64,000 bases of DNA from Euonymus europaeus (lineage: Eukaryota > Streptophyta > Magnoliopsida > Celastrales > Celastraceae): NCBI GenBank assembly GCA_963580455.1, contig OY756963.1, positions 17,689,555-17,753,554 on the forward strand, read 5' to 3'. Within the stretch, counting starts at the first letter, position 1. Each line of letters begins with the position of its first letter. Positions 8,931 to 46,800 of this stretch are shown piece after piece. A model generated the notes under the pieces. That model was not told the origin of the DNA, made no database searches, and saw only the letters and a program-made list of their open reading frames with translations. Both the position numbers and the translations under genes were made by a program.

Positions 8931-9130
8931 GATCCTTATAATCTCTCTCTCAAATCTGTAAATCAGTAAATTCCTATCAACACTACTAAGCCTACGAATG
9001 GGAGATAGCAAGGATTTGAGTAAGCTGAACACACGCCTAACACCCGTAAAATCATCCCATCCGGAAAATCGAGAAGCGACGACAGCGATCGACGACAGTA
9101 GTTCGTTGAGGGAAGAAATGAAATCGACAA
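8931..9130 (-). other. leader-like exon interrupted by the MULE
   Basis: GC-richer sequence on the minus strand ends at a donor (AGAAG|gtaagg at about 8931). Joining it to 17063 and beyond, with one copy of the 9-bp target duplication removed, gives a continuous leader that runs back to the AACGACGTCGTT palindrome at 17153-17164. No in-frame ATG opens a long frame, so this looks like 5' UTR. The MULE therefore split the first exon or leader of a minus-strand gene or gene fragment. Confidence 0.45.
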
Positions 9131-9209
9131 GGGAATTTTGCGAAAATGACCTAGTTGACAAAGATTTTTGGAAAAATGACATTGTCTCAAAAAAATCGCA
9201 TTTATGACC
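9131..9209 (+). repeat. MULE left terminal inverted repeat
   Basis: Starts GGGAATTTTGCGAAAATGAC and matches the reverse complement of 16975-17053 at 78 of 79 positions; the difference is ACATT here versus ACCTT in the right arm. Confidence 0.95.
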
Positions 9210-9384
9210 TCTTTTACCTTTTTCTTGACTAGAATACCCTTATGTGGCAAAAAATAAAATCGAACAACATTTATTACGCTGGGTTTAATTTATTACTTTG
9301 GGTTTTGAGCTCTGCGATGCATTTTTCGTTCTCGATCCATACATAGATCAAAACAGCCGCTCTGCATCTCTTTTTGTGCACCAA

Positions 9385-9892
9385 GTAAGTTCATTTGCTA
9401 GCTGAATGTGTTGTATATCGACTTATTACGCATGAGCTATTTCCTGTGCAATCGTTCGTGGCTAGCTGAATGTGTTGTATATCTGCTTATTACTCATGAG
9501 CTATTTAGGGTGAAATCTTTTGTGGATGCTCGATAATTAGTATCCGTCATTAACTAGATTGTATCCATGTTATAAGTTTGGAAGCTCAGATCTCTGTTGG
9601 TCGCTCAGATTTTTGTTGGTCGTGCCAGTGATTATGTGGTCGTGCCAGTGATTATGTGGTCGTGCCAATATATAGTGTGGTCGTGCCAGTGATTATCTGG
9701 TCGTGCCAAAAAATAGTGTGGTCGTGCCAGTGATTATGTGGTCGTGCCAAAAAATAGTGTGGTCGTGCCAGTGATTATGTGGTCGTGCCAATATATAGTG
9801 TGGTCGTGCCAGTGATTATCTGGTCGTGCCAGTGCTTTTTTATTTTCCTTTGAATTTTTTAAGTTCATTCTGATATATTATTATGTGTGCAG
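9385..9892 (+). other. leader intron of the MULE transposase gene
   Basis: Donor CCAA|gtaagt at 9385 and acceptor tgtgtgcag ending at 9892 bracket an intron in the 5' leader, two bases before the ATG. It holds a 64-bp tandem duplication (9397-9460 and 9461-9524) and the left motif cluster (9617-9835). The leader exon would be roughly 9290-9384. Confidence 0.65.
9617..9835 (+). repeat. motif cluster A: TGGTCGTGCC x 11
   Basis: Eleven exact copies of GGTCGTGCC lie at 20-21 bp spacing. Spacers alternate between AGTGATTAT and A/T-rich forms (AATATATAG or AAAAAATAG), giving a higher-order unit of about 41 bp. The orientation is opposite to the other three clusters in the element. Degenerate half-units (gttggtcgctcagat) precede it from about 9580. 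Confidence 0.95.
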
Positions 9893-9894
9893 GA

Positions 9895-12333
9895 ATGGCT
9901 TCTGAGATCGATTTTGTTTTGTTATATGGTGGAGAGTGGGAAAATTGTAGGGGCATGCACACTTTTAAAGGCGGGAGAAGTCAGGGTGTAATTGTGTCTA
10001 ATGCAATAACATATGCTGAATTTGTAAAACTCATATACCAGTTGATTGAAGTCGATTTTAACTCCTTCGATTTGGTGATGAAGTTTGTCTATAATACACA
10101 TTTCAAAATGGAACCGATGAAGCTACAGAATGAACGTGACTTGCAATTTTTCCTAAGGCAAAATGATCATCCAGTTAAACCTGGTACTCCACTGTGCGTA
10201 ACAACGGAGCAGAGAGCGAGTTATAAGTTTGTCTCACAAGATGCTAGCAATGGTCCAATGGAAAATAAAACATTTGTTGGACCAAATGTTGGTTCTGTTT
10301 CTCCTGAGTTACCACAATTTTCAAGTAAATTTGTAGCACACAACGATGGTGACGACGAGCAGGTTAATAACTACAGCGATTTTCACTTCTCTGATTTTGA
10401 GTTTCGAAATACTGGTAACGCTGATATTGATGGGGTTAATGATGACGATGATAGTCAGGGTCTTCATGGTGAAGAGTGGGAAAATCCATTTGATGACGGG
10501 GAACCACAATCACATAATCAATCCACCTTTGCGGCACAGGATCAGAGGAATCATTGCTCAAATTCTATTGGGCCTTCAGGTGTTGTTGCGAGTAATAGTA
10601 TTAGTAGCTCATCCGGTGGTCATGTTGCAGTTGGGCAGATTTATATGGACAAGAAAGAATTACAGAAAAATATAGCTGTGTATGCGATGAAAGAGAACAG
10701 AATGTTTCATGTCTTCAAATCAACGAAAACTCTATATGCGGTCAAATGTGTTGATATGGGATGTGATTGGCGCTTGCGAGCAATAAAATTGAAAGATTCA
10801 GAGTTCTTTAAGATAACAAGGTTTAATGGCAAGCATGAGTGTTCTCTAGACCTTATCAATCGAAGTCATAGACAAGCATCTGGAAAGGTCATTGGAGAAT
10901 GCATTAAGTCTAAATTTGAAGGGGTTGGTCGTACGTATCGGCCAAAAGATATAGTCGACGATGTGCGGACAGAGTTTGGTGTGAATATAAGCTACGACAA
11001 AGCTTGGAGGGCTAGGGAGTTTGCTTTGGAAGCGGTAAGAGGGTCACCAGAATTATCATTCTCGTATTTGCCACATTACTGTGCAGTGTTAGAGAAAAAT
11101 AACCCTGGTACAGTAACTCATATAGAGTTCGATAATGATTTTAAGTTTAAATTTTTTTTCCTTGCTCTTGGGCCATCGTTGAGAGGGTTTCGTAGTTCTT
11201 TGAGACGTGTCATTGCCGTTGATGGTACTCACCTCAAGGGAAAATACATGGGCACACTCTTTGTGGCTGCTGCTTTAGACGGCAACAACAAAATTTATCC
11301 GGTTGCTTTTGGAATGGGAGATTCAGAAAATAATGCATCTTGGGAATGGTTCATGGGAAAACTAAGATCAGCTATTGATCTTGAAGATTTCTCAGAGTTG
11401 GCAATAATATCAGATAGACATAATAGCATTGAGAGGGCAGTCGCTTTGGTTTTTCCAGAGTCATACCATGGGCACTGTATACACCACATCAAGCAAAACA
11501 TGAAAGCAAAAAATATTGATGATAGTGTCTTCCCTATTTATTTTAAGGCAGCGAAGGCATATCGTGTTTCAGAATTTGAGCATCTAATGACACAATTGCG
11601 TGGGTTTCAAGATGGCAGGGCACATCGTTATTTAGTTGATGCTGGATTTGAAAGGTGGTCTCGTGCACATTTTCCAGGTAGGAGGTACAGTATACTAACC
11701 ACTAATATTGCTGAGAGTTTGAATGCTGTTTTGAGAGAAGCACGATGTCTTCCAATTACAACATTGGTTGACCATCTAAGATCGTTACTTCAGAGATGGT
11801 TCCATGAGCGTCGCACTAAAGCAGCTTCCATTACAACCCAACTTTGCAAGAAAATTGATAAGAAGTTGAGAAAGCGGATTGACAAGGCGCAGCGTATGTC
11901 TGTTGAACCAATTAGTCATATTCAGTTTTATGTAAGGGATGGATTCGGTGGTGGAGAGGTGAATCTGCACAACAGAACATGCACCTGCAGGAAATTTGAG
12001 ATGCAACAATTGCCTTGCGTTCATGCGTTGGCTGCGTGTAGAACACGTAACATTGATACGCAATCCATGTGTTCACGCTACTATACAAATGAGGCAATTA
12101 TGTTAGCTTATGCTGAACCGATTAACACAGTACCAATTGAAGACCATCGGCATGCAAGTGAAGATCAAAGGTTATTGCCACCTGATACGAGAAGACCTGG
12201 GGGGAGACCAAAACAAAGAAGAATACCATCCGCCGGTGAATCTGTAGCAATTAGAAAGTGTGGAAGATGTAAAAAAATTGGCCATAACCGACAGACCTGT
12301 AAGGAGCCGGTAGCCTCGACTGGTAGGGTATAA
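9895..12333 (+). CDS. mudrA-like: MuDR-type MULE transposase
   Basis: A single uninterrupted 812-codon frame. I chose the ATG at 9895 because it directly follows an intron acceptor; an in-frame ATG four codons upstream lies in the intron. Domain order: an N-terminal PB1-like region (about 1-95), an acidic linker, the Mutator DNA-binding domain (about 250-340; CDMGCDWRLRA, NGKHECSL), the MULE transposase core (about 430-540) and a C-terminal zinc region. Likely DDE residues are D443 (VDGTHLKG), D507 (ISDRH) and E607 (NIAESLNA), with the C/H motif at C528, H530 and H531. A SWIM zinc finger is visible (C696, C698, C708, H710) and a CCHC knuckle (C789, C792, H797, C802). The protein should bind the 79-bp ends and catalyse cut-and-paste transposition in the nucleus. 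All expected motifs are present and there is no internal stop, so it may be active. Confidence 0.95.
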   Translation: MASEIDFVLLYGGEWENCRGMHTFKGGRSQGVIVSNAITYAEFVKLIYQLIEVDFNSFDLVMKFVYNTHFKMEPMKLQNERDLQFFLRQNDHPVKPGTPLCVTTEQRASYKFVSQDASNGPMENKTFVGPNVGSVSPELPQFSSKFVAHNDGDDEQVNNYSDFHFSDFEFRNTGNADIDGVNDDDDSQGLHGEEWENPFDDGEPQSHNQSTFAAQDQRNHCSNSIGPSGVVASNSISSSSGGHVAVGQIYMDKKELQKNIAVYAMKENRMFHVFKSTKTLYAVKCVDMGCDWRLRAIKLKDSEFFKITRFNGKHECSLDLINRSHRQASGKVIGECIKSKFEGVGRTYRPKDIVDDVRTEFGVNISYDKAWRAREFALEAVRGSPELSFSYLPHYCAVLEKNNPGTVTHIEFDNDFKFKFFFLALGPSLRGFRSSLRRVIAVDGTHLKGKYMGTLFVAAALDGNNKIYPVAFGMGDSENNASWEWFMGKLRSAIDLEDFSELAIISDRHNSIERAVALVFPESYHGHCIHHIKQNMKAKNIDDSVFPIYFKAAKAYRVSEFEHLMTQLRGFQDGRAHRYLVDAGFERWSRAHFPGRRYSILTTNIAESLNAVLREARCLPITTLVDHLRSLLQRWFHERRTKAASITTQLCKKIDKKLRKRIDKAQRMSVEPISHIQFYVRDGFGGGEVNLHNRTCTCRKFEMQQLPCVHALAACRTRNIDTQSMCSRYYTNEAIMLAYAEPINTVPIEDHRHASEDQRLLPPDTRRPGGRPKQRRIPSAGESVAIRKCGRCKKIGHNRQTCKEPVASTGRV

Positions 12334-12481
12334 TACCAATGATCGACGATTCAAATTGTTAAACATTTACTTTGTACTGTAAACTGTTAAACGTTACTTC
12401 CTACAATGCTGCTTTTATTGAAAGCTGTCAGTCTATGATTGTATTTATTATATATGTAAAATTCTGTCCAGTTAAGTTGCA

Positions 12482-12625
12482 GGCACGACCAGGTTAAACT
12501 GCTAGCAAGACTAGGCTAAAATTCTGCACGACCAGTTAAAAAATAGTGGGCACGACCAGAATAAAATGCTGGCACGACCAGTAAAAAGTTAGCAGGCACG
12601 ACCAGTTACAATGCTCGCACGACCA
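12482..12625 (+). repeat. motif cluster B: GCACGACC x 6 between the convergent genes
   Basis: Six exact GCACGACC copies plus one degenerate copy (gcaagacta) at irregular 18-30 bp spacing lie between the transposase stop (12333) and the protease stop (12686). They could be in the 3' UTR of either gene. Confidence 0.9.
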
Positions 12626-12685
12626 ATAAAAAATGTGGAAGAATTTAAATTTATATAATTCACAGTTCACATTTAAAAAAAATAT

Positions 12686-15600
12686 TCACATTATGAACTC
12701 CTGTCCCCAAGCCTCTGAACAAAACTTTTGTCTATAGAATTTCATGTCCCCTTGCTCAATAATTTTTACTGGCAGATCAGCCGTCAATGCTTCGATAAAT
12801 TTGAAGGCAAACATGCCACAATCTCCTCTACAATGAACACACAAAAAAGTATCAGCATACATAATAAAGTATCAACGCTCACTATTCTTGGTATAGGAAC
12901 TTACCCTCCAGTTTGTCTAGGGCATGAAGGTATCCGCTGCAATCTCCATGGAGCAAACAATCCATCCCCCAAACCAGTGGAATGCAAAATATGTGGAAGC
13001 ATATTCGTCAAGGGATCAAATATGGTCTTCAATGCAGCACTACTTGTGAGACTGGGCAGTGAGTCGTAGACATGAATGGTCTTTTTTTCAATTACCAATT
13101 CCACAGCAACCCAGTGCTGATTGTTGAAGTTTGCTGGAAAATAAACAAACTTTGACCCTGCCCAGGCAACAGATTCAATTGGAAGTAGCCCCACAACATA
13201 ATCTAAAAATATGCTTTCCTCGTCCCAACTGGCAATATCATCCGGCTTTGCCTTGAACAACTCAAACTTCTCCTGTACCCTGGTCTGTAATCATATGAAT
13301 ATACATAAAAGCAGGAATAATCAAGCACGAACAAAATGATTAAAAAAATGAAGTATTAATGACAAGGTGTAACTTACAAAGAACAGGCAGTCTAGGACCA
13401 CACAATCTCTCTTAAAACAGCCTGGGAACTTTGCCATTCTTTTCCTAATCAGGTACATGGCTACATCAAGGTGCTGTATGAAGATGCCTTGTTACATGTT
13501 AGTACACATGTAATGCAAACACAGGCAGGACCAGTTAAACACAGGCACGACCACTTAACTAACAGGCACGACCACTTAAACACAGGCACGACCACTTAAC
13601 TAACAGGCACGACCACTTAAGTAACAAGCACGACCACTTAACTAACAGGCACGACCACTTAACTAAAAATTAACAGGCACGACCACTTAACTAACAGGCA
13701 CGACCACTTAACTAACAGGCACGACCAGGCAAATAACAGGCACGACCACTTAACTAACAGGCAGGACCAGTTAAACACAGGCACGACCACTTAACTAACA
13801 GGCACGACCACTTAAACACGGACAGGACCAGTTAAACACAGGCACGACCACTTAACTAACAGGCACGACCAGGCAAGTAACAGGCACGACCAATTAAAAT
13901 TATTACCAAAAAATGTATGTTTACCTGGTCTGTTAACCATCCGTCCAACCTTATGGCCTCCATAAACCACTGTTTATTTACTGAACATGTTGGCCAACTT
14001 AAGCTTTCTCCATCCCGGACCTATCTTTCATGAATGCACGTAACTCATCTGCCCATTGTTCTGGCCACTTCCTCTTCAGGTCTAATTTTATAATCTCTTT
14101 ACTTGAGACATCTTTAACATTGAGATCAGTTGTTCTTCTTTTCTTCAAGGATGGAGATGTAAATGGTGTCCTTTTCAGAGGTCCAGGCTTCAACGCGCGC
14201 TTTTGTTTGTTCCTCACATAGGGTTTAATACCCCCTTCTAGTGCTTGAGGGAACTTTGATGGTGTCACAACCTGGACCCCGGAAAAATCTTGACTCTTTC
14301 CAGGTGGGGTAAAGGAAGCCATGGAGCTCAGACCAGTATGCAATACATCAAGGTCTCTATGCTCTTCGGCATCATCAACAGGGGCATCAACCTCACCCTC
14401 TACCACAGTACTGCCATTCTTTCCCTCCTCCACCGTCTCTACATTTTCCACCTCCGCAGCATCTGCATTTTCTACCTTCTCATAGACCACACCCTCTACA
14501 TTGCCCCCTCCAACACCCTCAGCCTCATCCGCATCAGTCATCACACCCACATCGACAACTGAAACAGGAACCCCACCCTTTACATTACTCCCTCTCACCA
14601 CATCACCATCAGCCTCATCCGCATCCGTCTGCACCCCCACATCAGCAACTAAAACAGGAACTGGGAATTTAACTGCTTCCCCCCCGTTAGTAAAATTTTT
14701 CATTGCCAACACCGCATCATCAACGCACTTATGAACCACTGTCATAGTATATAAAAATTCAGATTTAAGTGCACTAATCAAGCTTCCCTCATGAACCTGT
14801 TTCTTCAAATTATCAAGCTTCACAATCACCTCATGAACAACTCGATAATCTGCATCAATGGATTGCTCCACAGGTTCAGTGTGGCCATGTGCATCGAAGG
14901 ATTGCACAACAGGTTCAATGTGACCCTGTGCATCCAAATATTGCTCCACAGGAGCTGTGTGATCACTAGAAGAAGCTGCAGATTCATTATCTTCATTCAT
15001 TGCTCGCTCTCCCACCTTGTTACTCACGTTGATCCAGTAGTCCTGCTCCATCTCAACCCCATTTGCAGCTAGCATAGTGTGTACTTGCAGCTATTGCAAC
15101 ATAGAGAATCAAGCATTAGCACCTTAATATTTTGTCCATAAGAATTATCACAAATATAAAAAAATTTAAATTTTTTTACCTTGGCTTGTTGGAATACATT
15201 CTGTAAGAGTTCTTTCCAATCCGGTGTGTGGTGGCTGCTCCAATTGAGTAATCTAGGAATCCCATCTCTTATTTTTGAGGCATACAACGAACCGATATGG
15301 GGAACAACTTCATATGACCATATCTAAAATCAATAACAACATTATTAGTTTGCAATAAAAAAGTTCACCGTAAAATATACCAATATTATAGAAATAATAC
15401 CTGGAGGACCATAGGGAAACCATAAACACAGTACTGCTCCTTCTTTGTTGGTCTTTTCTTTCTTTTCTCCACTCGGTTGACCATTATTCTTGCAAGTGAG
15501 TCAACGGTTCGTTCAAAGCTCACCGTCCCCCATGGATATCTATTAAATGCCTCCAAATTGTCAACCAATTGAAGCCACTTATCATCTATAAACCTATGTC

Positions 15601-16126
15601 GCTCCTTAGCAAGTAGGACAAACTCTATAAAATACACAAGAGCTAACTTCACCACATCCTCATCATCATGGCCACCCCTTCTGCACATACGAGAGAAACA
15701 GACCTCCAAATTATATCTCGAAATCTTCTCACTTCCATCAAACCACAAATTCCTCAACTTATGTACATCAATATCAACTAATGAACCAATTTCTGGCACG
15801 TCCCTACAAACTAAACCGGTTATGAGGGCAAAATCTGTAATACCAAAAGATGTCAGCCTATTCGCGATCTTAAAATTTAATCTAACTCCAAAGACTCCAG
15901 AATCAACATCAGGGGATTCAACCTGTCTTAATAGGAGCTGATGTATCAACTGTCCTGATACAGAAAGATCACCAACATCTAGGAAAATGCCGAAGCATGT
16001 CCTCCTAAATAACTCAAGTTGATTATCACTCAAATTATCCCTTATTTGTGCAATGACATGTGATATATTTGAAAAAATTGTAACCTTTGCAGTAAAATGA
16101 TCCTCCTCAGCAATGATATAATTCAT
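12686..16126 (-). CDS. DUF1985/ULP1-like cysteine protease gene of the MULE (frame broken once)
   Basis: Exons on the minus strand, all GT-AG: 16126-15401 (ATG at 16126, DUF1985 domain, 242 codons), 15323-15180, a long exon from 15090 to about 13925, 13473-13378, 13284-12905, and 12827-12686 (TGA). Reading phases agree at every junction. The C-terminal part is a ULP1/C48 peptidase: His in NQHWVAVEL (13116-13114), Asp in VYDSL (13065-13063) and Cys in DCGMFAF (12820-12818). Such proteins are predicted to remove SUMO-like modifiers. The acidic linker exon (DADEAEG-type repeats) is low complexity. The frame of the long exon stops at TAA 14001-13999, while the next block (SLSWPTCSVNKQWF) reads in another frame that is itself closed by a TAG near 14024. 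A one-base shift within about 25 bases, or an unseen intron, is needed. A leader intron (about 16134-16745) precedes the ATG. Confidence 0.85.
13524..13890 (+). repeat. motif cluster C: GGCACGACCA x 15 in a protease-gene intron
   Basis: Fifteen exact GCACGACC copies and three GGCAGGACC or GACAGGACC variants at about 20-21 bp spacing, with spacers such as CTTAACTAACA. It fills the intron 13474-13924 of the protease gene. Confidence 0.95.
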
Positions 16127-16133
16127 GATTAAT

Positions 16134-16745
16134 CTGCACAAAAAAAAGAACAATTATGGCACGACCAGAGAAAATTGTGGCACGACCATGTGACATTATG
16201 GCACGACCAGTTAAAATGCAGGCACGACCAGTTAAAATGATGGCACGACCATGTACAAAGCAGACAGACAAAATCAACAGATAGGCACGACCAGAAAAAC
16301 ATGATGGCACGACCAGAAAAACATGATGGCACGACCAGTTAAATGCTAGGAACTAGCAAACAAAACAGGCAAAACTAGTGAACAAGTTAGCATGACCAAA
16401 AAAACAGGCACGACCAATTTATATTAAGAACATGTTGGCACGACCAAGGAAAATGTTGGCACGACCAAAGAACATGATGGCATGACCATTTACAAAGCAG
16501 GCAGACCAAATAAACAGGCACGACCAGATAAATAGGCACGCACGACCGTAGAAAAATTCGGCAAAAAAATATATGAACATGATGACACTACCACTTAACA
16601 AGCAGAAAAACCATGAAACAACTTTCAATTATGATCCAAAAAGATTAAAAAAAAGGAAGAAGAAGCAAGAAATGCCATCCCTAAACCTATACACACAACC
16701 TACATACAAATTTGTATAAAAATAACTGAAACAGATATACATACC
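16134..16745 (-). other. leader intron of the MULE protease gene
   Basis: Acceptor tgcag ends at 16134, eight bases before the ATG, and a donor GAG|gtatgt lies at about 16745. The leader exon would be about 16746-16870. Intron placement just upstream of the start codon, filled with the motif, mirrors the transposase gene. Confidence 0.6.
16158..16548 (+). repeat. motif cluster D: GGCACGACCA x 13 in the protease leader intron
   Basis: Thirteen exact GCACGACC copies plus two GCATGACC variants, with spacing of about 20-42 bp and spacers often AGTTAAAATGA or AGAAAAACATGA. On the protease sense strand they read TGGTCGTGCC, the same as cluster A on the transposase sense strand. Confidence 0.95.
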
Positions 16746-16974
16746 TCAAAGGTACTCGAGTGTGTTCACAATTGCTAATCCCTTGCTAATTGGCTTCGGT
16801 TTCGGATTTTTTCGCAGAATATAAATGGTTGAATTGCCGTCGTTTCAGTTGTGCTCTGCTCTCTGTTGAATGCTTGCGTCTTTTTGTTTAAAATGATGTG
16901 AATCCGGTGGGAATACAGGAATGGGAAGGGACGTAACCCATAAAGGACATTTCGGTACTTAACCGTTTTAAAAG

Positions 16975-17053
16975 GGTCATAAATGCGATTTTTTTGAGAC
17001 AAGGTCATTTTTCCAAAAATCTTTGTCAACTAGGTCATTTTCGCAAAATTCCC
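16975..17053 (-). repeat. MULE right terminal inverted repeat
   Basis: Reverse complement of the left end with one mismatch over 79 bp; followed by the target duplication aatcgacaa at 17054-17062. Confidence 0.95.
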
Positions 17054-17062
17054 AATCGACAA

Positions 17063-22910: not shown

Positions 22911-25900
22911 CAGGGGCGGCCCTGGGCAGGGGCGACAGGGGCAGCCGCCCAGGGGCCCCTAAATTTTTTTTAATACTAATAAGTTATAATAAATGTATAT
23001 ATTTTATTTTTTACAACCATTGTAATCTTAATTGACTTGCTGTCTAGTGGTACGCCTTAAGGTTTACAGCTTGAAGACCAGAGTTCGAGTCGACCCTCAC
23101 GCGTATGTATGTAGTATTGTAGTGTTTTTTTTTCGTTTTTGTAACTTAAAATTGGGCTGATGGGCTCCCACAGATATCACTTCAATCCAACACTCCAACC
23201 CTAAGGCCCTAATTTCCAATTCCAAGTCTAAATCCAAAACTTACCTACAAAGCCCAATTTGAACTATTGCCCTAATTTCTAAATCAAAACAAACTCTCCC
23301 TAGCCCTAATCAATCTAACAATCTTCTCTGAAGTCTGATCTGATTTCTCTCTCAATCTCTCGTCTTTAAAGTAACTGGTAACATCTTTCTCACAAATTCA
23401 CAATCTCTCTCCGACAGTTCGACTCTCCGTCCGGCGTCCGACACTCCGACGTCCGCTCAGCTCAAGCGCTCACTGCCTCACCTTCATTGCTGCCTTACTG
23501 CACAGGCATACAGCTGCAAGTCTGCAACTGGGTGCTCCGTGCTCGCTCAGTGATAGTGCTGCCGCCGTGGTTCTGCCTGTCCGCCTTCAGCCAGGTGATT
23601 TCGTTCCTCACTAGAGTATTAATTGAAATTGAATTAGAATTATAGAAACCTCAAACGGTCAAACTTGAAACTAGTGAGTAGACGAGTAGTGTGTAGGTTG
23701 TGTTACTGTGTAGTGACTAGTTATTGATTATAAATTATTTGACTAATTGACTTGTTGGAAATTGGAAATTTGGAATGTTGGTGCTCTGCCTTAGGCCTTA
23801 AATGTGACTATGTGAGCAGTGAGCTTGAACTCTGAAGCCTGTGATAGTGACAGTGTATTAGTTAATTAATAATTAGTGTTTCTGTGTTTGTGAATTGTGT
23901 AGTTCTTTTAGTGATAATTACTTTATTAATTTTAGTATAATGAGTAGCCGAAAGTATAAGTCTGGATATGAGAAAAGAAAACAAAAAAAAAATGAAGAAC
24001 TTGTTCGGTCTCTTGTAGGATCTCTTGATAAATTTATGCCTAGTAAACAAAAGGGGGGTTCCACATCTAATGTAATTGAAGAAGAAACAAATCAACCATT
24101 ATCGATTGATGATGTGGTTGAGAATGATCAATTTCAAGAGGAAACAAATCAACCAATAGGTGAGGAAGAATTAGAATTTGGGCCTATAAACATTTATGAT
24201 CCCGGAAATTGGAATTATATTGATATAAAATTTAGAGACCTAATAGTGGAAAAAGGTCCAATTAGAATTTTTGATGTTGATTTTTGTGTTGATAAAAATG
24301 GTAGACATTTCTCATCCAATCACTATGAACGAGTGTTATTGAATGGAGAGGAACAAGATAAGAAATGGCTTGTATATTCATTATCTAAAGACAAAGTTTT
24401 TTGCTTTTGTTGTAAGTTATTCAAGCAAGACCAAAACACTTCCCATTTGACTACGGATGGGTATAATGATTGGAAGCATCTTAGTGACCGAATCAAAGCT
24501 CATGAAACTAGTAGTGAACATCTAGTTTGCATGACCAAATGGATGGAATTACAAATAAGGTTGAAAAAGAATGAAACAATTGATAAGAGTTTGCAAGAAC
24601 AAATAGATAGGGAGAAAGAACATTGGAAACAAGTATTATTGAGGATAATAGCTCTTGTAAAAACTCTTGCAAGAAATAATTTAGCATTCCGTGGTCATAT
24701 GGAGAAGCTTTATGAAGGAAAGAATGGAAACTTTTTAGGTTTTATTGAGATGCTTGGAGAGTTTGATTCAATCATACAAGAACACCTTCAACGTGTTAAA
24801 AATAAATCAATCCATTACCATTATCTTAGTCCAAAAATTCAAAATGAGTTTATCCTACTCTTAGCAAATGAGATTAAATATACAATTATAGCAAAGATAA
24901 AACAAGCAAAATATTATTCTGTAATTCTTGATTGTACTCCGGATATAAGTCATGATGAACAAATGTCTCTTATATTGCGATGTGTAGATGTTTCTGTGAA
25001 ACCAATTAAAGTTGAGGAATTTTTTATACAATTTATAAAGGTAGATGATACAACAGGGCTTGGTCTTTTTAATGTTCTTAAAGATGTACTTAAAGATTAT
25101 GACCTTGATATTGATGACATAAGAGGACAAGGATATGACAATGGATCTAATATGAAAGGAAAACATAAAGGTGTTCAAAATAGGCTACTTATGGAGAATC
25201 CTAGAGCATTTTATACACCATGTGGTTGTCATAGTTTAAATCTTGTACTTTGTGATATGTGAAACTCTTGTGAGAAAGCTATAGCTTTCTTTGGAGTTGT
25301 GCAACGTATATATTCATTGTTTGCATCATCTACAAAACGGTGGAATGTTTTGACACATTATGTGAAAAATCTTACACTTAAGCCATTTTCTCAAACACGT
25401 TGGGAAAGTCGTGTTGAAAGTGTTAAAGCAATACGTTATCAAACTCCACAAATTAGAGATGCTTTAGTCGATTTAGCAAGTAGTAGTGAAGATCCTAAAA
25501 CAAAGAGTGAAGCTCAATCCTTAGCTACAAATGAAATTGAGAGTTTTGAGTTTTTAATGGGGATGATAATTTGGCATAATGTATTGTTTGCTGTTAATAC
25601 TATTAGCAAAACCCTTCAAGCTGAAGATATGGATATTAAGGTAGCTATAGAAAAATTAGGTGGACTCATCTCATTTTTGGAACAATATAGGGAAACTGAA
25701 TTTGTTGATGCTATGACTGAAGCTAAAGAAGTAGCTAGTGAAATGGGTATTGAACCTATTTTTAGAACAAAACGTATCATTTGAAGAAAAAGACAATTTG
25801 ATGAGATTAATAGTGAAGATTTAATACGCTCAGCTGAAGAATCCTTCAAAGTTGACTATTTTCTTTATGTAATAGATAAATTTATTTCTTCTTTTAGAAG

Positions 25901-45378: not shown

Positions 45379-46800
45379 TCATATCGCTAGACATTTGCAA
45401 CTAATTACTTCAAGATCATCATGAGAAAACAATTGTGGTATAGAGGAGCTCAACATAACTCCAATCATGCTCCCTGTGGCACCAACATCAAACGCCACTG
45501 TGCTAAGCCCCTTGCCAATAACAAAAATTGTCTTTCCTATAGCCACAAGTTGGCAGGGTGGTCTTGTAAGTAGCGAGGACAGCCTCCCCACCAGCAGCCA
45601 TTCCCTCAACTCTTTCTGCCACATCATCAACCTGGTCCCTGAACTTTGATCCAACACATATAGAGTACCGTCTATAACAACGGCTGGTCCCTGCCAGCCT
45701 GAAGCCATCTCGGAATCTACATGCTGCCAGGCGCCAGTTGATGATTCGTATACAACTGCAGAGACAGGAGAGTTTATGGAAGTGCTGCAGCGAATGTATA
45801 TCTTCCCGTTCATAACTATCGAATCTTCGATTTCAGAAACAATTTTAGGATCTGAATGAGATGCCCATTTGTTTGTGCAAGGGTTGTAAGTGTCCCATGA
45901 ATATGGATCGCTTGATTTTGTGCCTATTCCACCGATTGCATAGATATTTTCACACAAAGTTTGGCAAGCAAAGAAGCACCTGAATGCATTGAACCGTAAA
46001 TATAAATCCCAAAACTGAAGAAAAGCAGCAGGCAAATCTCATGCATTACTTAAATGGACTTAACTCCTTCAATGTAGAATGGACATTCAAATGGCCCAAA
46101 TGAACAAACCCAAAAGGCAAACCCAAAAAAGAAATTGCAATCATGTAGTAGATGGGCATGCATGATGCAGCTGAAGTGGAAACAGCTGTTTCTGTCCATT
46201 TCCAGAGACCCAATACAAGATTAGTGATTATAGGGTAGGAAGTAGGAACATAAAAAAGAAGTCATTCACAGTCAGCTCAACTTTAACTTTCTGTGAAGCT
46301 TATCAGAGCATTATTGTGAAGGTAACTTTGGTGAAGAATGTGAACAAGGAGTATTACCTAGGAGTTGACAAGGGAGCAACCTCAGACCAAGTGTTCATGG
46401 CTGCATCATAGCAGTAGACTTCATCAGTAGCATCTTCCAACCAACTACAGCCACCCAACAAGTAAATCTTTTTTCCAATTGTCTCAAAACCCATGCCATT
46501 TCTCTTTATACAACGAGGTGGAAGACCATCAATGAACCGCCAACACCTTCTTGATGAACTGGGATCCAATACATAGCAACAGACTTGCTGAAACCTGTCT
46601 AGACACAACGCATAAATCCAAGTCTCATCCAAATTATGCTTTTTTCGGTAACCATGCCACTCTTTATTGCACAATAAGTCTCTCAATCGCTTGGAAACAC
46701 ACTTCAGGACTGCATGGTACCTACGTGGTACTCTTGCCAAGCATGAAAGGGCAATGTCATCCGGAAATCCTGGTATTAGGGGAGCTCGATTTATTTCCAT
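45379..46800 (-). CDS. SKIP4: F-box/kelch-repeat protein, SKIP4-like
   Basis: Two coding exons, 46358-46800 and 45379-45979, joined at CCTAG|G in phase, give 347 residues. The start is MEINRAPLIPGFPDDIALSC (ATG 46800-46798); stop TGA at 45381-45379. The F-box is at about residues 8-50 (DDIALSCLARVPRRYHAVLK), and kelch blades follow with GGCSWLEDATDEVYCYD, then IYAIGGIGTKSSDP, WDTYNPCTNKW and LYVLDQSSGTRLMMWQKEL. F-box/kelch proteins act as substrate receptors of SCF (SKP1-cullin) ubiquitin ligases. Length and domain order agree with Arabidopsis SKIP4. The CDS has no stops or frameshifts. An acceptor (gcattgcag) lies nine bases upstream of the ATG, and a leader exon ending TTGCAG|gtattg lies at about 47501-47600, so a 5' UTR intron is likely. 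It is the best-preserved host gene of the window. The assignment to SKIP4 itself is from recall. Confidence 0.9.

What the first reader, a model, noticed from the sequence alone, without database searches (positions are those of the whole stretch)
9617..16548. A 10-bp motif, GGCACGACCA, repeated about 45 times in four clusters of one MULE, confined to noncoding positions
Exact counts by reading: cluster A 11, B 6, C 15, D 13, plus several one-base variants. The motif is absent from the exons. Two clusters fill 5' leader introns that end only a few bases before the start codons of the two genes, one fills an internal intron, and one lies between the convergent 3' ends. Orientation is TGGTCGTGCC on the sense strand of each gene for A, C and D, so on the element it points the same way inward from both ends. 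Spacing is mostly 20-21 bp, about two helical turns. CACTA elements have subterminal transposase-binding repeats; I know of no such array described for MULEs. It could be a binding platform for the transposase or a host factor, an intronic enhancer, or a minisatellite that spread between introns.
Basis: partly seen in the sequence, partly recalled or inferred. Interest (0 to 1): 0.88.

Follow-up and report, generated by a model that had tools for sequence, protein, structure and literature searches.

The report
Jumping gene's own anti-silencing docking sites
A plant jumping gene carries 41 exact copies of a ten-letter DNA word, all in its non-coding parts, most likely as docking sites for a protein it also encodes that is predicted to free it from the plant's gene silencing; this kind of self-defence is already known from Arabidopsis, and here it goes with a new word.

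Summary
GGCACGACCA occurs exactly 41 times in the window, all inside one 7.9-kb MULE, none in predicted coding exons. The element's second gene encodes a DUF1985 + Ulp1 protein. By sequence profile (E 6.6e-10 and 1.7e-18; single sequence only 0.0053) and by predicted fold (E 8.9e-8, the only PDB hit below 0.001) it matches VANC21, the Arabidopsis VANDAL21 protein crystallised on its target DNA. VANC proteins bind short, same-orientation motif arrays in noncoding parts of their own MULE and cause loss of DNA methylation (PMC5735166). In the host genome nine full-length copies hold 497 exact motifs, 0 in coding DNA. Forty loci of other DUF1985 clades carry other repeats (TTCTAAAC, TTCTCAACC, TTATCAAC) and no GGCACGACCA; motif follows the DUF1985 tree. 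Best reading: a new VANC/target pair of a known kind, in a MULE that keeps long terminal inverted repeats. Binding and demethylation are inferred, not tested. This copy's VANC-like gene has a frame break; sister copies are open there.

The parts
9122..9130 (.). target-site duplication AATCGACAA, left copy
   Evidence: identical 9-mer directly outside both TIRs
9131..9214 (+). left terminal inverted repeat (84 nt, 96% to the right one)
9385..9892 (+). predicted 5' leader intron of the transposase gene, holds cluster A
   Evidence: donor AA|GTAAGT and acceptor TGTGCAG|; acceptor context found in 9 of 9 full-length copies; donor context in 8 of 9, the ninth (L107) is split there by another copy and its donor is seen in L108 at 181
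9617..9830 (-). cluster A: 11 exact GGCACGACCA, spacing 20/21
9895..12333 (+). transposase gene: MuDR DNA-binding domain, MULE domain, SWIM zinc finger, C-terminal CX2CX4HX4C knuckle
   Evidence: Pfam scan of 9898-12333, zinc motifs
12482..12625 (+). cluster B: 4 exact + 2 one-mismatch motifs between the convergent 3' ends
12686..12827 (-). VANC-like gene, last exon, with Ulp1 catalytic Cys (GDCGMF)
   Evidence: the family profile aligns to SENP1 here
12905..13284 (-). VANC-like gene, exon 5 with Ulp1 His and Asp (QHWV, VYDS)
   Evidence: Pfam Peptidase_C48 E 5.4e-11 on 12901-13260
13378..13473 (-). VANC-like gene, exon 4
13474..13924 (-). predicted intron holding cluster C
   Evidence: donor CAG|GTAAAC, acceptor CATACAG|; both contexts found in 9 of 9 copies
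13524..13892 (+). cluster C: 14 exact, 17 with up to one mismatch
13925..15090 (-). VANC-like gene, long exon 3; reading frame breaks between 14023 and 13999 in this copy
   Evidence: sister copies align in one frame through it
15180..15323 (-). VANC-like gene, exon 2
15401..16126 (-). VANC-like gene, exon 1: DUF1985
   Evidence: Pfam E 1.8e-22; VANC21 by profile and by fold
16134..16744 (-). predicted 5' leader intron of the VANC-like gene, holds cluster D
   Evidence: donor GAG|GTATGT, acceptor TTTTTTTTGTGCAG|; both found in the 5 subfamily-1 copies (window included), the acceptor not found as such in subfamily 2
16158..16548 (+). cluster D: 12 exact, 13 with up to one mismatch, plus two-mismatch variants
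16970..17053 (-). right terminal inverted repeat
17054..17062 (.). target-site duplication AATCGACAA, right copy

Best explanation
The GGCACGACCA arrays are most likely the target sites of the element's own VANC-like protein (DUF1985 + Ulp1), which would bind them in the introns and spacer of the MULE and remove the host's silencing marks so that both genes are expressed. Shown here: the arrays, their absence from predicted coding DNA in nine full-length copies, the relation of the DUF1985 protein to VANC21, whose solved structure is a complex with its target DNA, and the fact that other DUF1985 clades of the same genome carry other repeats. Inferred: that this DUF1985 domain binds this motif, that density raises avidity, and that binding causes loss of DNA methylation as shown for VANC21 and VANC6 in Arabidopsis. 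Speculative: that the Ulp1 part removes SUMO from silencing factors. Arrays would grow by tandem duplication and be kept where they do not disturb coding sequence; deleted copies without the gene would be served in trans.
For: DUF1985, Ulp1 and MuDR transposase domains. Profiles of the protein with its homologs hit PDB VANC21 9lnj/9lnk (E 6.6e-10; 1.7e-18). AlphaFold2 model (pLDDT 85) has one PDB match at E<0.001: VANC21 with its target DNA, E 8.9e-8, TM 0.74 on the query, 20% identity. Arrays in introns, upstream region and spacer, same orientation within a cluster, high density, as for VANC21. 0 of 497 exact sites coding in nine copies, 45,773 coding nt. In 189 non-redundant array members (up to two mismatches) the ten core columns have majority frequencies 0.91-1.00, the 24 flanking columns 0.34-0.90. 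The core is the same in two subfamilies whose VANC-like proteins are 55-75% identical except in the last exon (93-96%). Motif follows the DUF1985 tree: GGCACGACC rows one group (98/98), TTCTCAACC rows one group (100/100), 7 label changes against 16.1 in shuffles, 0 of 200 as low. Internally deleted copies L104 and L110 keep arrays. Gene predictions from Cucumis melo and Tanacetum join MULE domains with DUF1985 and/or Ulp1 domains.
Against: No binding, methylation, expression or small-RNA data for this plant. The VANC-like frame of the window copy is broken in exon 3. In subfamily 2 array B uses mostly 23-24 bp and the VANC introns 21-24 bp, so helical phasing is not general. Arabidopsis VANDALs have degenerate TIRs (PMC10398659 passage); this element has 84-bp TIRs. 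The single sequence matches VANC21 only weakly (E 0.0053). The eight further copies were chosen through the motif, and three of them (L107, L112, L115) are near-identical. The other motifs were found in the same loci on which they were then mapped, near-copies inflate the association, the tree's bootstrap had not settled, and 3 of 50 rows had no label. An array also exists in a sequence without similarity to the element (L117). The nearest other clade, L156, has only nine copies of its repeat.
Confidence: 0.83

Rival explanations
1. The arrays are binding sites of the MULE transposase, like subterminal repeats of CACTA elements, and help synapsis or cutting of the ends.
For: The transposase has a MuDR DNA-binding domain and zinc fingers; arrays A and D lie about 0.5-0.9 kb from the ends.
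Against: Clusters B and C lie mid-element, in a spacer and an internal intron. The TIRs themselves hold no motif. Between subfamilies the transposase is about 95% identical while array lengths, linkers and the VANC-like protein diverge. Motif follows the DUF1985 tree; no transposase tree was made, so this is not a clean test between the two proteins.
Confidence: 0.06
2. A neutral minisatellite spread between introns by duplication and gene conversion; absence from exons only reflects selection against coding changes.
For: Linkers show tandem duplication (alternating units in A, repeated units in C); introns tolerate repeats.
Against: The 10-bp core is kept while linkers differ within clusters, between clusters and among copies. 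Other DUF1985 clades have different short cores next to their DUF1985 exon, without GGCACGACCA.
Confidence: 0.07
3. An intronic enhancer or splicing element read by a host factor, raising expression of both genes.
For: Two arrays fill predicted leader introns next to start codons with TGGTCGTGCC on the sense strand.
Against: Cluster B is in the spacer between the genes; different DUF1985 clades in the same host use different motifs, which one host factor would not predict.
Confidence: 0.04

Closest known systems
VANDAL21 (Hiun) with VANC21, Arabidopsis (Hosaka 2017, PMC5735166: sections 8, 9, 11 and passages read)
   Same: MULE with a DUF1985 protein; short motif (YAGTATTAY) in same-orientation dense arrays in introns, upstream and intergenic parts; arrays expand and contract as tandem repeats; fold match to the VANC21-DNA structure
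   Different: Motif is GGCACGACCA and contains a CpG; element keeps 84-bp TIRs; no third gene (VANB) seen among the frames listed; Ulp1 domain in the same predicted gene as DUF1985
VANDAL6 with VANC6 (PMC5735166, section 10 seen as passages)
   Same: A second VANC with its own motif (AGTTGTCC/AGTTGTAC) arrays in noncoding DNA
   Different: Other motif; Arabidopsis
Kaonashi / KIU MULEs (PMC13317346 and PMC2528002, passages)
   Same: Ulp1 domain encoded in reverse orientation to the transposase; per PMC13317346, KIU-carrying VANDALs are hypomethylated through specific motifs
   Different: KI-MULEs are non-TIR; this element has TIRs, as reported for ULP-carrying TIR-MULEs of melon and grapevine
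CACTA subterminal transposase-binding repeats (recalled, from no call)
   Same: Short repeated protein-binding motif near element ends
   Different: Here arrays are also internal, and the motif follows the DUF1985 clade

Membership tests
VANC-type anti-silencing MULE | Mutator-like transposase (MuDR DBD, MULE domain, SWIM) and 9-bp TSD | tested here: met
   three further copies with their own perfect 9-bp TSDs: L106, L116, and L108 with its right end read in L107
VANC-type anti-silencing MULE | Second gene encodes a DUF1985 protein related to VANC21 | tested here: met
   single-sequence E only 0.0053
VANC-type anti-silencing MULE | Short motif in dense, same-orientation arrays in noncoding DNA of the element | tested here: met
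   0 of 497 exact sites coding in nine copies; cluster A runs opposite to B, C and D on the element
VANC-type anti-silencing MULE | Motif differs between VANC clades | tested here: met
   3 of 50 rows unlabelled; motifs found and mapped in the same loci
VANC-type anti-silencing MULE | VANC binds the motif and causes hypomethylation | not testable with these tools
   needs EMSA, ChIP and bisulfite data
VANDAL transposase clade | Transposase groups with Arabidopsis VANDALs | not tested
   no labelled VANDAL transposase at hand; SWIM plus CCHC as listed for group 45 in PMC6446971 is only compatible
Arabidopsis VANDAL (non-TIR MULE) | Absent or degenerate TIRs | tested here: not met
   84-nt TIRs, 96%; PMC6446971 notes TIR-bearing members of the clade
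Kaonashi (KI) MULE | Non-TIR MULE with reverse-oriented Ulp1 gene | tested here: not met
   Ulp1 gene in reverse orientation is present, but TIRs are long
Active Ulp1 protease | His-Asp-Cys catalytic residues in place | tested here: met
   QHWV, VYDS, GDCG in the predicted exons; the family profile, not this sequence alone, aligns to SENP1 there; that these are the catalytic residues is recalled; activity not tested

The most novel reading that the evidence does not exclude
One plant genome holds at least four VANC/motif lock-and-key pairs in parallel (GGCACGACCA, TTCTAAAC, TTCTCAACC, TTATCAAC, perhaps ATGATACC), each kept by its own DUF1985 clade, so that many MULE families free themselves from silencing without freeing each other. 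The GGCACGACCA pair belongs to a TIR-bearing MULE whose VANC carries a SUMO-protease domain, so anti-silencing would not require loss of TIRs and could work by deSUMOylating silencing factors at the arrays.
Probability: 0.4. Interest if true: 0.66.

Novelty: new member of a known kind. Interest (0 to 1): 0.5.

Why it matters
It would carry the VANC anti-silencing system, whose experiments I saw only for Arabidopsis, to another eudicot (nearest named relatives are Tripterygium proteins) with a new target motif and useful natural contrasts: two subfamilies sharing a motif with diverged VANC proteins, and other clades with other motifs in one genome. With the VANC21-DNA structure solved, such pairs make the question of how DUF1985 reads and changes its DNA target directly testable, and would add a CpG-containing target to the possible tools for locus-specific epigenome editing.

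Tried and rejected
Array pattern (three motifs, 18-24 bp apart) in public viral and prokaryote contigs: 2 viral and 93 prokaryote stretches, read as background in a collection of 257 billion bases; none was studied. First AlphaFold2 model on 14 narrow homologs was poor (pLDDT 47) and was not used. Helical phasing as a general rule: B+D of the window fit it under a uniform-spacing null (p 0.0004), subfamily 2 does not. CpG retention as a methylation signal: arrays o/e 0.80 with motifs, 0.45 without, other noncoding of the element 0.87, coding 0.51, rest of window 0.52, so no clear signal apart from the motif itself. Literature: the motif strings occur in 46 papers, the 20 listed being unrelated by title. 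Sasaki 2022 (PMC9016345) and Fu 2013 (PMC3773815) are not held; what I say of the first rests on recall and on passages of PMC13317346. In the listings I saw no paper on this motif or on a VANC system in this plant; Sasaki 2022 concerns eudicots by its title, so it may cover related elements.
Full report
What is there. The window holds one complete Mutator-like element at 9131-17053: 84-nt terminal inverted repeats, 96% alike, flanked by the 9-bp duplication AATCGACAA. The + strand gene (likely ATG at 9895, stop at 12333) has a MuDR DNA-binding domain, a MULE transposase domain, a SWIM finger and a C-terminal CCHC knuckle. The convergent - strand gene runs from 16126 to 12686 in six predicted exons: exon 1 is DUF1985 (E 1.8e-22), exons 5 and 6 give a Ulp1 domain (E 5.4e-11 for exon 5) with His, Asp and Cys in place.

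The motif. GGCACGACCA is the commonest 10-mer of the window: 41 exact copies, 0.03 expected, A 11, B 4, C 14, D 12; 47 with up to one mismatch. No exact copy lies outside the element and none overlaps predicted coding exons. A and D sit in predicted leader introns, C in a predicted internal intron, B between the convergent genes. Spacing is 20-21 bp in A and mostly so in C, 21-22 for most steps in D, 21-24 in B. Over 51 sites with up to two mismatches the core has a mean majority frequency of 0.97 against 0.55 for ten flanking bases each side: the core is kept while linkers differ.

What binds it. Profiles of the DUF1985 protein with its homologs find VANC21 in the PDB (E 6.6e-10, E 1.7e-18, with the match running on past DUF1985); the single sequence does so only weakly (E 0.0053). 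An AlphaFold2 model (pLDDT 85) has a single PDB match at E<0.001, 'VANC21 in complex with its target DNA' (E 8.9e-8, TM 0.74 on the query, rmsd 4.0). In Arabidopsis, VANC21 and VANC6 bind short motifs that form dense arrays in noncoding DNA of their own VANDAL elements and cause loss of DNA methylation there; for VANC21 the arrays are in introns, intergenic and terminal regions, in one orientation (PMC5735166). RdDM acts on the same noncoding regions (PMC10398659, abstract and passages). The anatomy here agrees in array position, density and orientation; TIRs differ.

Other copies in the host genome. The window lies at G000:C7:17689555-17753554 of a 443-Mb genome. The exact motif occurs 3,649 times there, its reversed control 123 times; motif + 10 N + motif 549 times, control 0. 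I fetched 14 places from those listed first, all on contigs C1-C3, chosen because they hold the motif. Eight are full-length two-gene copies: L106, L108, L114, L116 (subfamily 1) and L107, L111, L112, L115 (subfamily 2); L113 is degenerate and cut at the edge, L109 a degenerate transposase part, L104 and L110 internally deleted derivatives, L105 a fragment; L117 has nine exact motifs but no similarity to the element. The eight plus the window hold 497 exact sites; 0 overlap 45,773 coding nt. All nine have arrays in slots A, B, C and D; subfamily 2 has a further array in VANC intron 1. Subfamily 2 transposase is about 95% identical to the window's (88% in one short piece of L111), its VANC-like exons 55-75% except the last (93-96%), yet the core is unchanged. 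Four insertions, the window's included, show different perfect 9-bp duplications; one of them, L108, sits inside the leader intron of L107. The family has therefore moved, in part onto itself.

The window copy's VANC-like gene. Exon 3 changes frame between 14023 and 13999. In the sister copies L106, L108, L114 and L116 the alignment runs through that stretch in one frame. So this copy likely makes no complete protein and would depend on others in trans.

Other VANC clades. PF09331 has 406 candidate places in the genome, 150 scored, all listed as over the cut-off. I looked at the 30 best (L118-L147, about 3.4 kb each) and ten chosen for diversity (L148-L157, 4 kb each), 40 of 150. None of the 40 has GGCACGACCA even with one mismatch. 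Instead L118-L151 and L153 carry TTCTAAAC (33 of these 35 rows at least six copies, L135 and L137 four), L154 and L155 TTCTCAACC (28 and 12; shuffles 0.03 and 0.08), L152 TTATCAAC (21; shuffles 0.29), L156 ATGATACC (9; shuffles 0.12), L157 none. In six of the seven loci examined in detail all sites have one orientation; in L156 one of nine differs. In all seven no site falls within the printed DUF1985 stretch; sites flank it on both sides in four and lie on one side in three (L154, L155, L156). Orientation relative to the gene is not the same in L154 and L155. On a tree of 50 DUF1985 rows (L104, L105, L109, L110 and L117 left out as partial or lacking the domain) the GGCACGACC rows form one group (98/98), the TTCTCAACC rows another (100/100); labels need 7 changes against 16.1 in shuffles, 0 of 200 as low. 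Caveats: motifs were found in the same loci, near-copies cluster by themselves, and the bootstrap had not settled.

Mechanism, shown and inferred. Shown: arrays, absence from coding DNA, conservation of the core, relation to VANC21 in sequence and fold, clade-specific motifs in the loci seen. Inferred: binding by this DUF1985 protein, loss of methylation, benefit to transcription. Untested: role of Ulp1. Helical phasing fits subfamily 1 (a published link of VANC targets to helical periodicity is recalled from the abstract of Sasaki 2022, which I could not read), but subfamily 2 uses mostly 23-24 bp in array B and 21-24 in the VANC introns, so I do not rely on it.

Relation to known systems. 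It works like a VANC/VANDAL pair. I do not file it as an Arabidopsis-type non-TIR VANDAL or as a KI-MULE, because long TIRs are present; TIR-bearing ULP-MULEs are known from melon and grapevine (PMC2528002 passages) and TIR-bearing VANDAL-clade members from other Brassicaceae (PMC6446971 passages). Nearest named proteins are from Tripterygium wilfordii: transposase 74% over 63% (P0020), VANC-like 49% over 39% (P0091).

Verdict. A real, well-observed feature with a known kind of explanation: a likely new VANC/target pair, and a good natural set for studying how such pairs diverge.

Noticed in passing
L117:4500-5800 (G000:C1, about 26.096 Mb): A decayed GGCACGACC array in a sequence with no blastn match to the element; 24 of 37 substitutions in 35 members are C>T or G>A, as would be expected of methylated DNA.
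   Followed up: partly
L107/L108 (G000:C2, about 2.886-2.894 Mb): One copy of the MULE (L108) is inserted in the leader intron of another (L107), at TTATAAGTT, with a perfect 9-bp duplication.
   Followed up: partly
L149, L150: Besides TTCTAAAC, a second repeated 10-mer GGGGGATGCA (7 and 5 copies).
   Followed up: no
P0112 (Benincasa hispida): A database protein in which DUF1985 is joined to PF02362 (B3 DNA-binding domain, name recalled).
   Followed up: no
L104, L110: Internally deleted derivatives of the MULE that keep arrays (A; A and D) and both end regions, possible trans targets.
   Followed up: partly
window 23940-25262 (+): Frame with DUF4371 (PF14291, E 8.4e-24), of the kind found in hAT-type transposase relatives (the hAT link is recalled).
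   Followed up: no
window 45379-46035 (-): Kelch-repeat protein fragment, weak Pfam matches.
   Followed up: no
P0051, P0055, P0057, P0068 (Cucumis melo), P0090 (Tanacetum): Gene predictions in which MULE-transposase or SWIM domains are joined with DUF1985 and/or Ulp1 domains, a sign of such elements in other eudicots.
   Followed up: no
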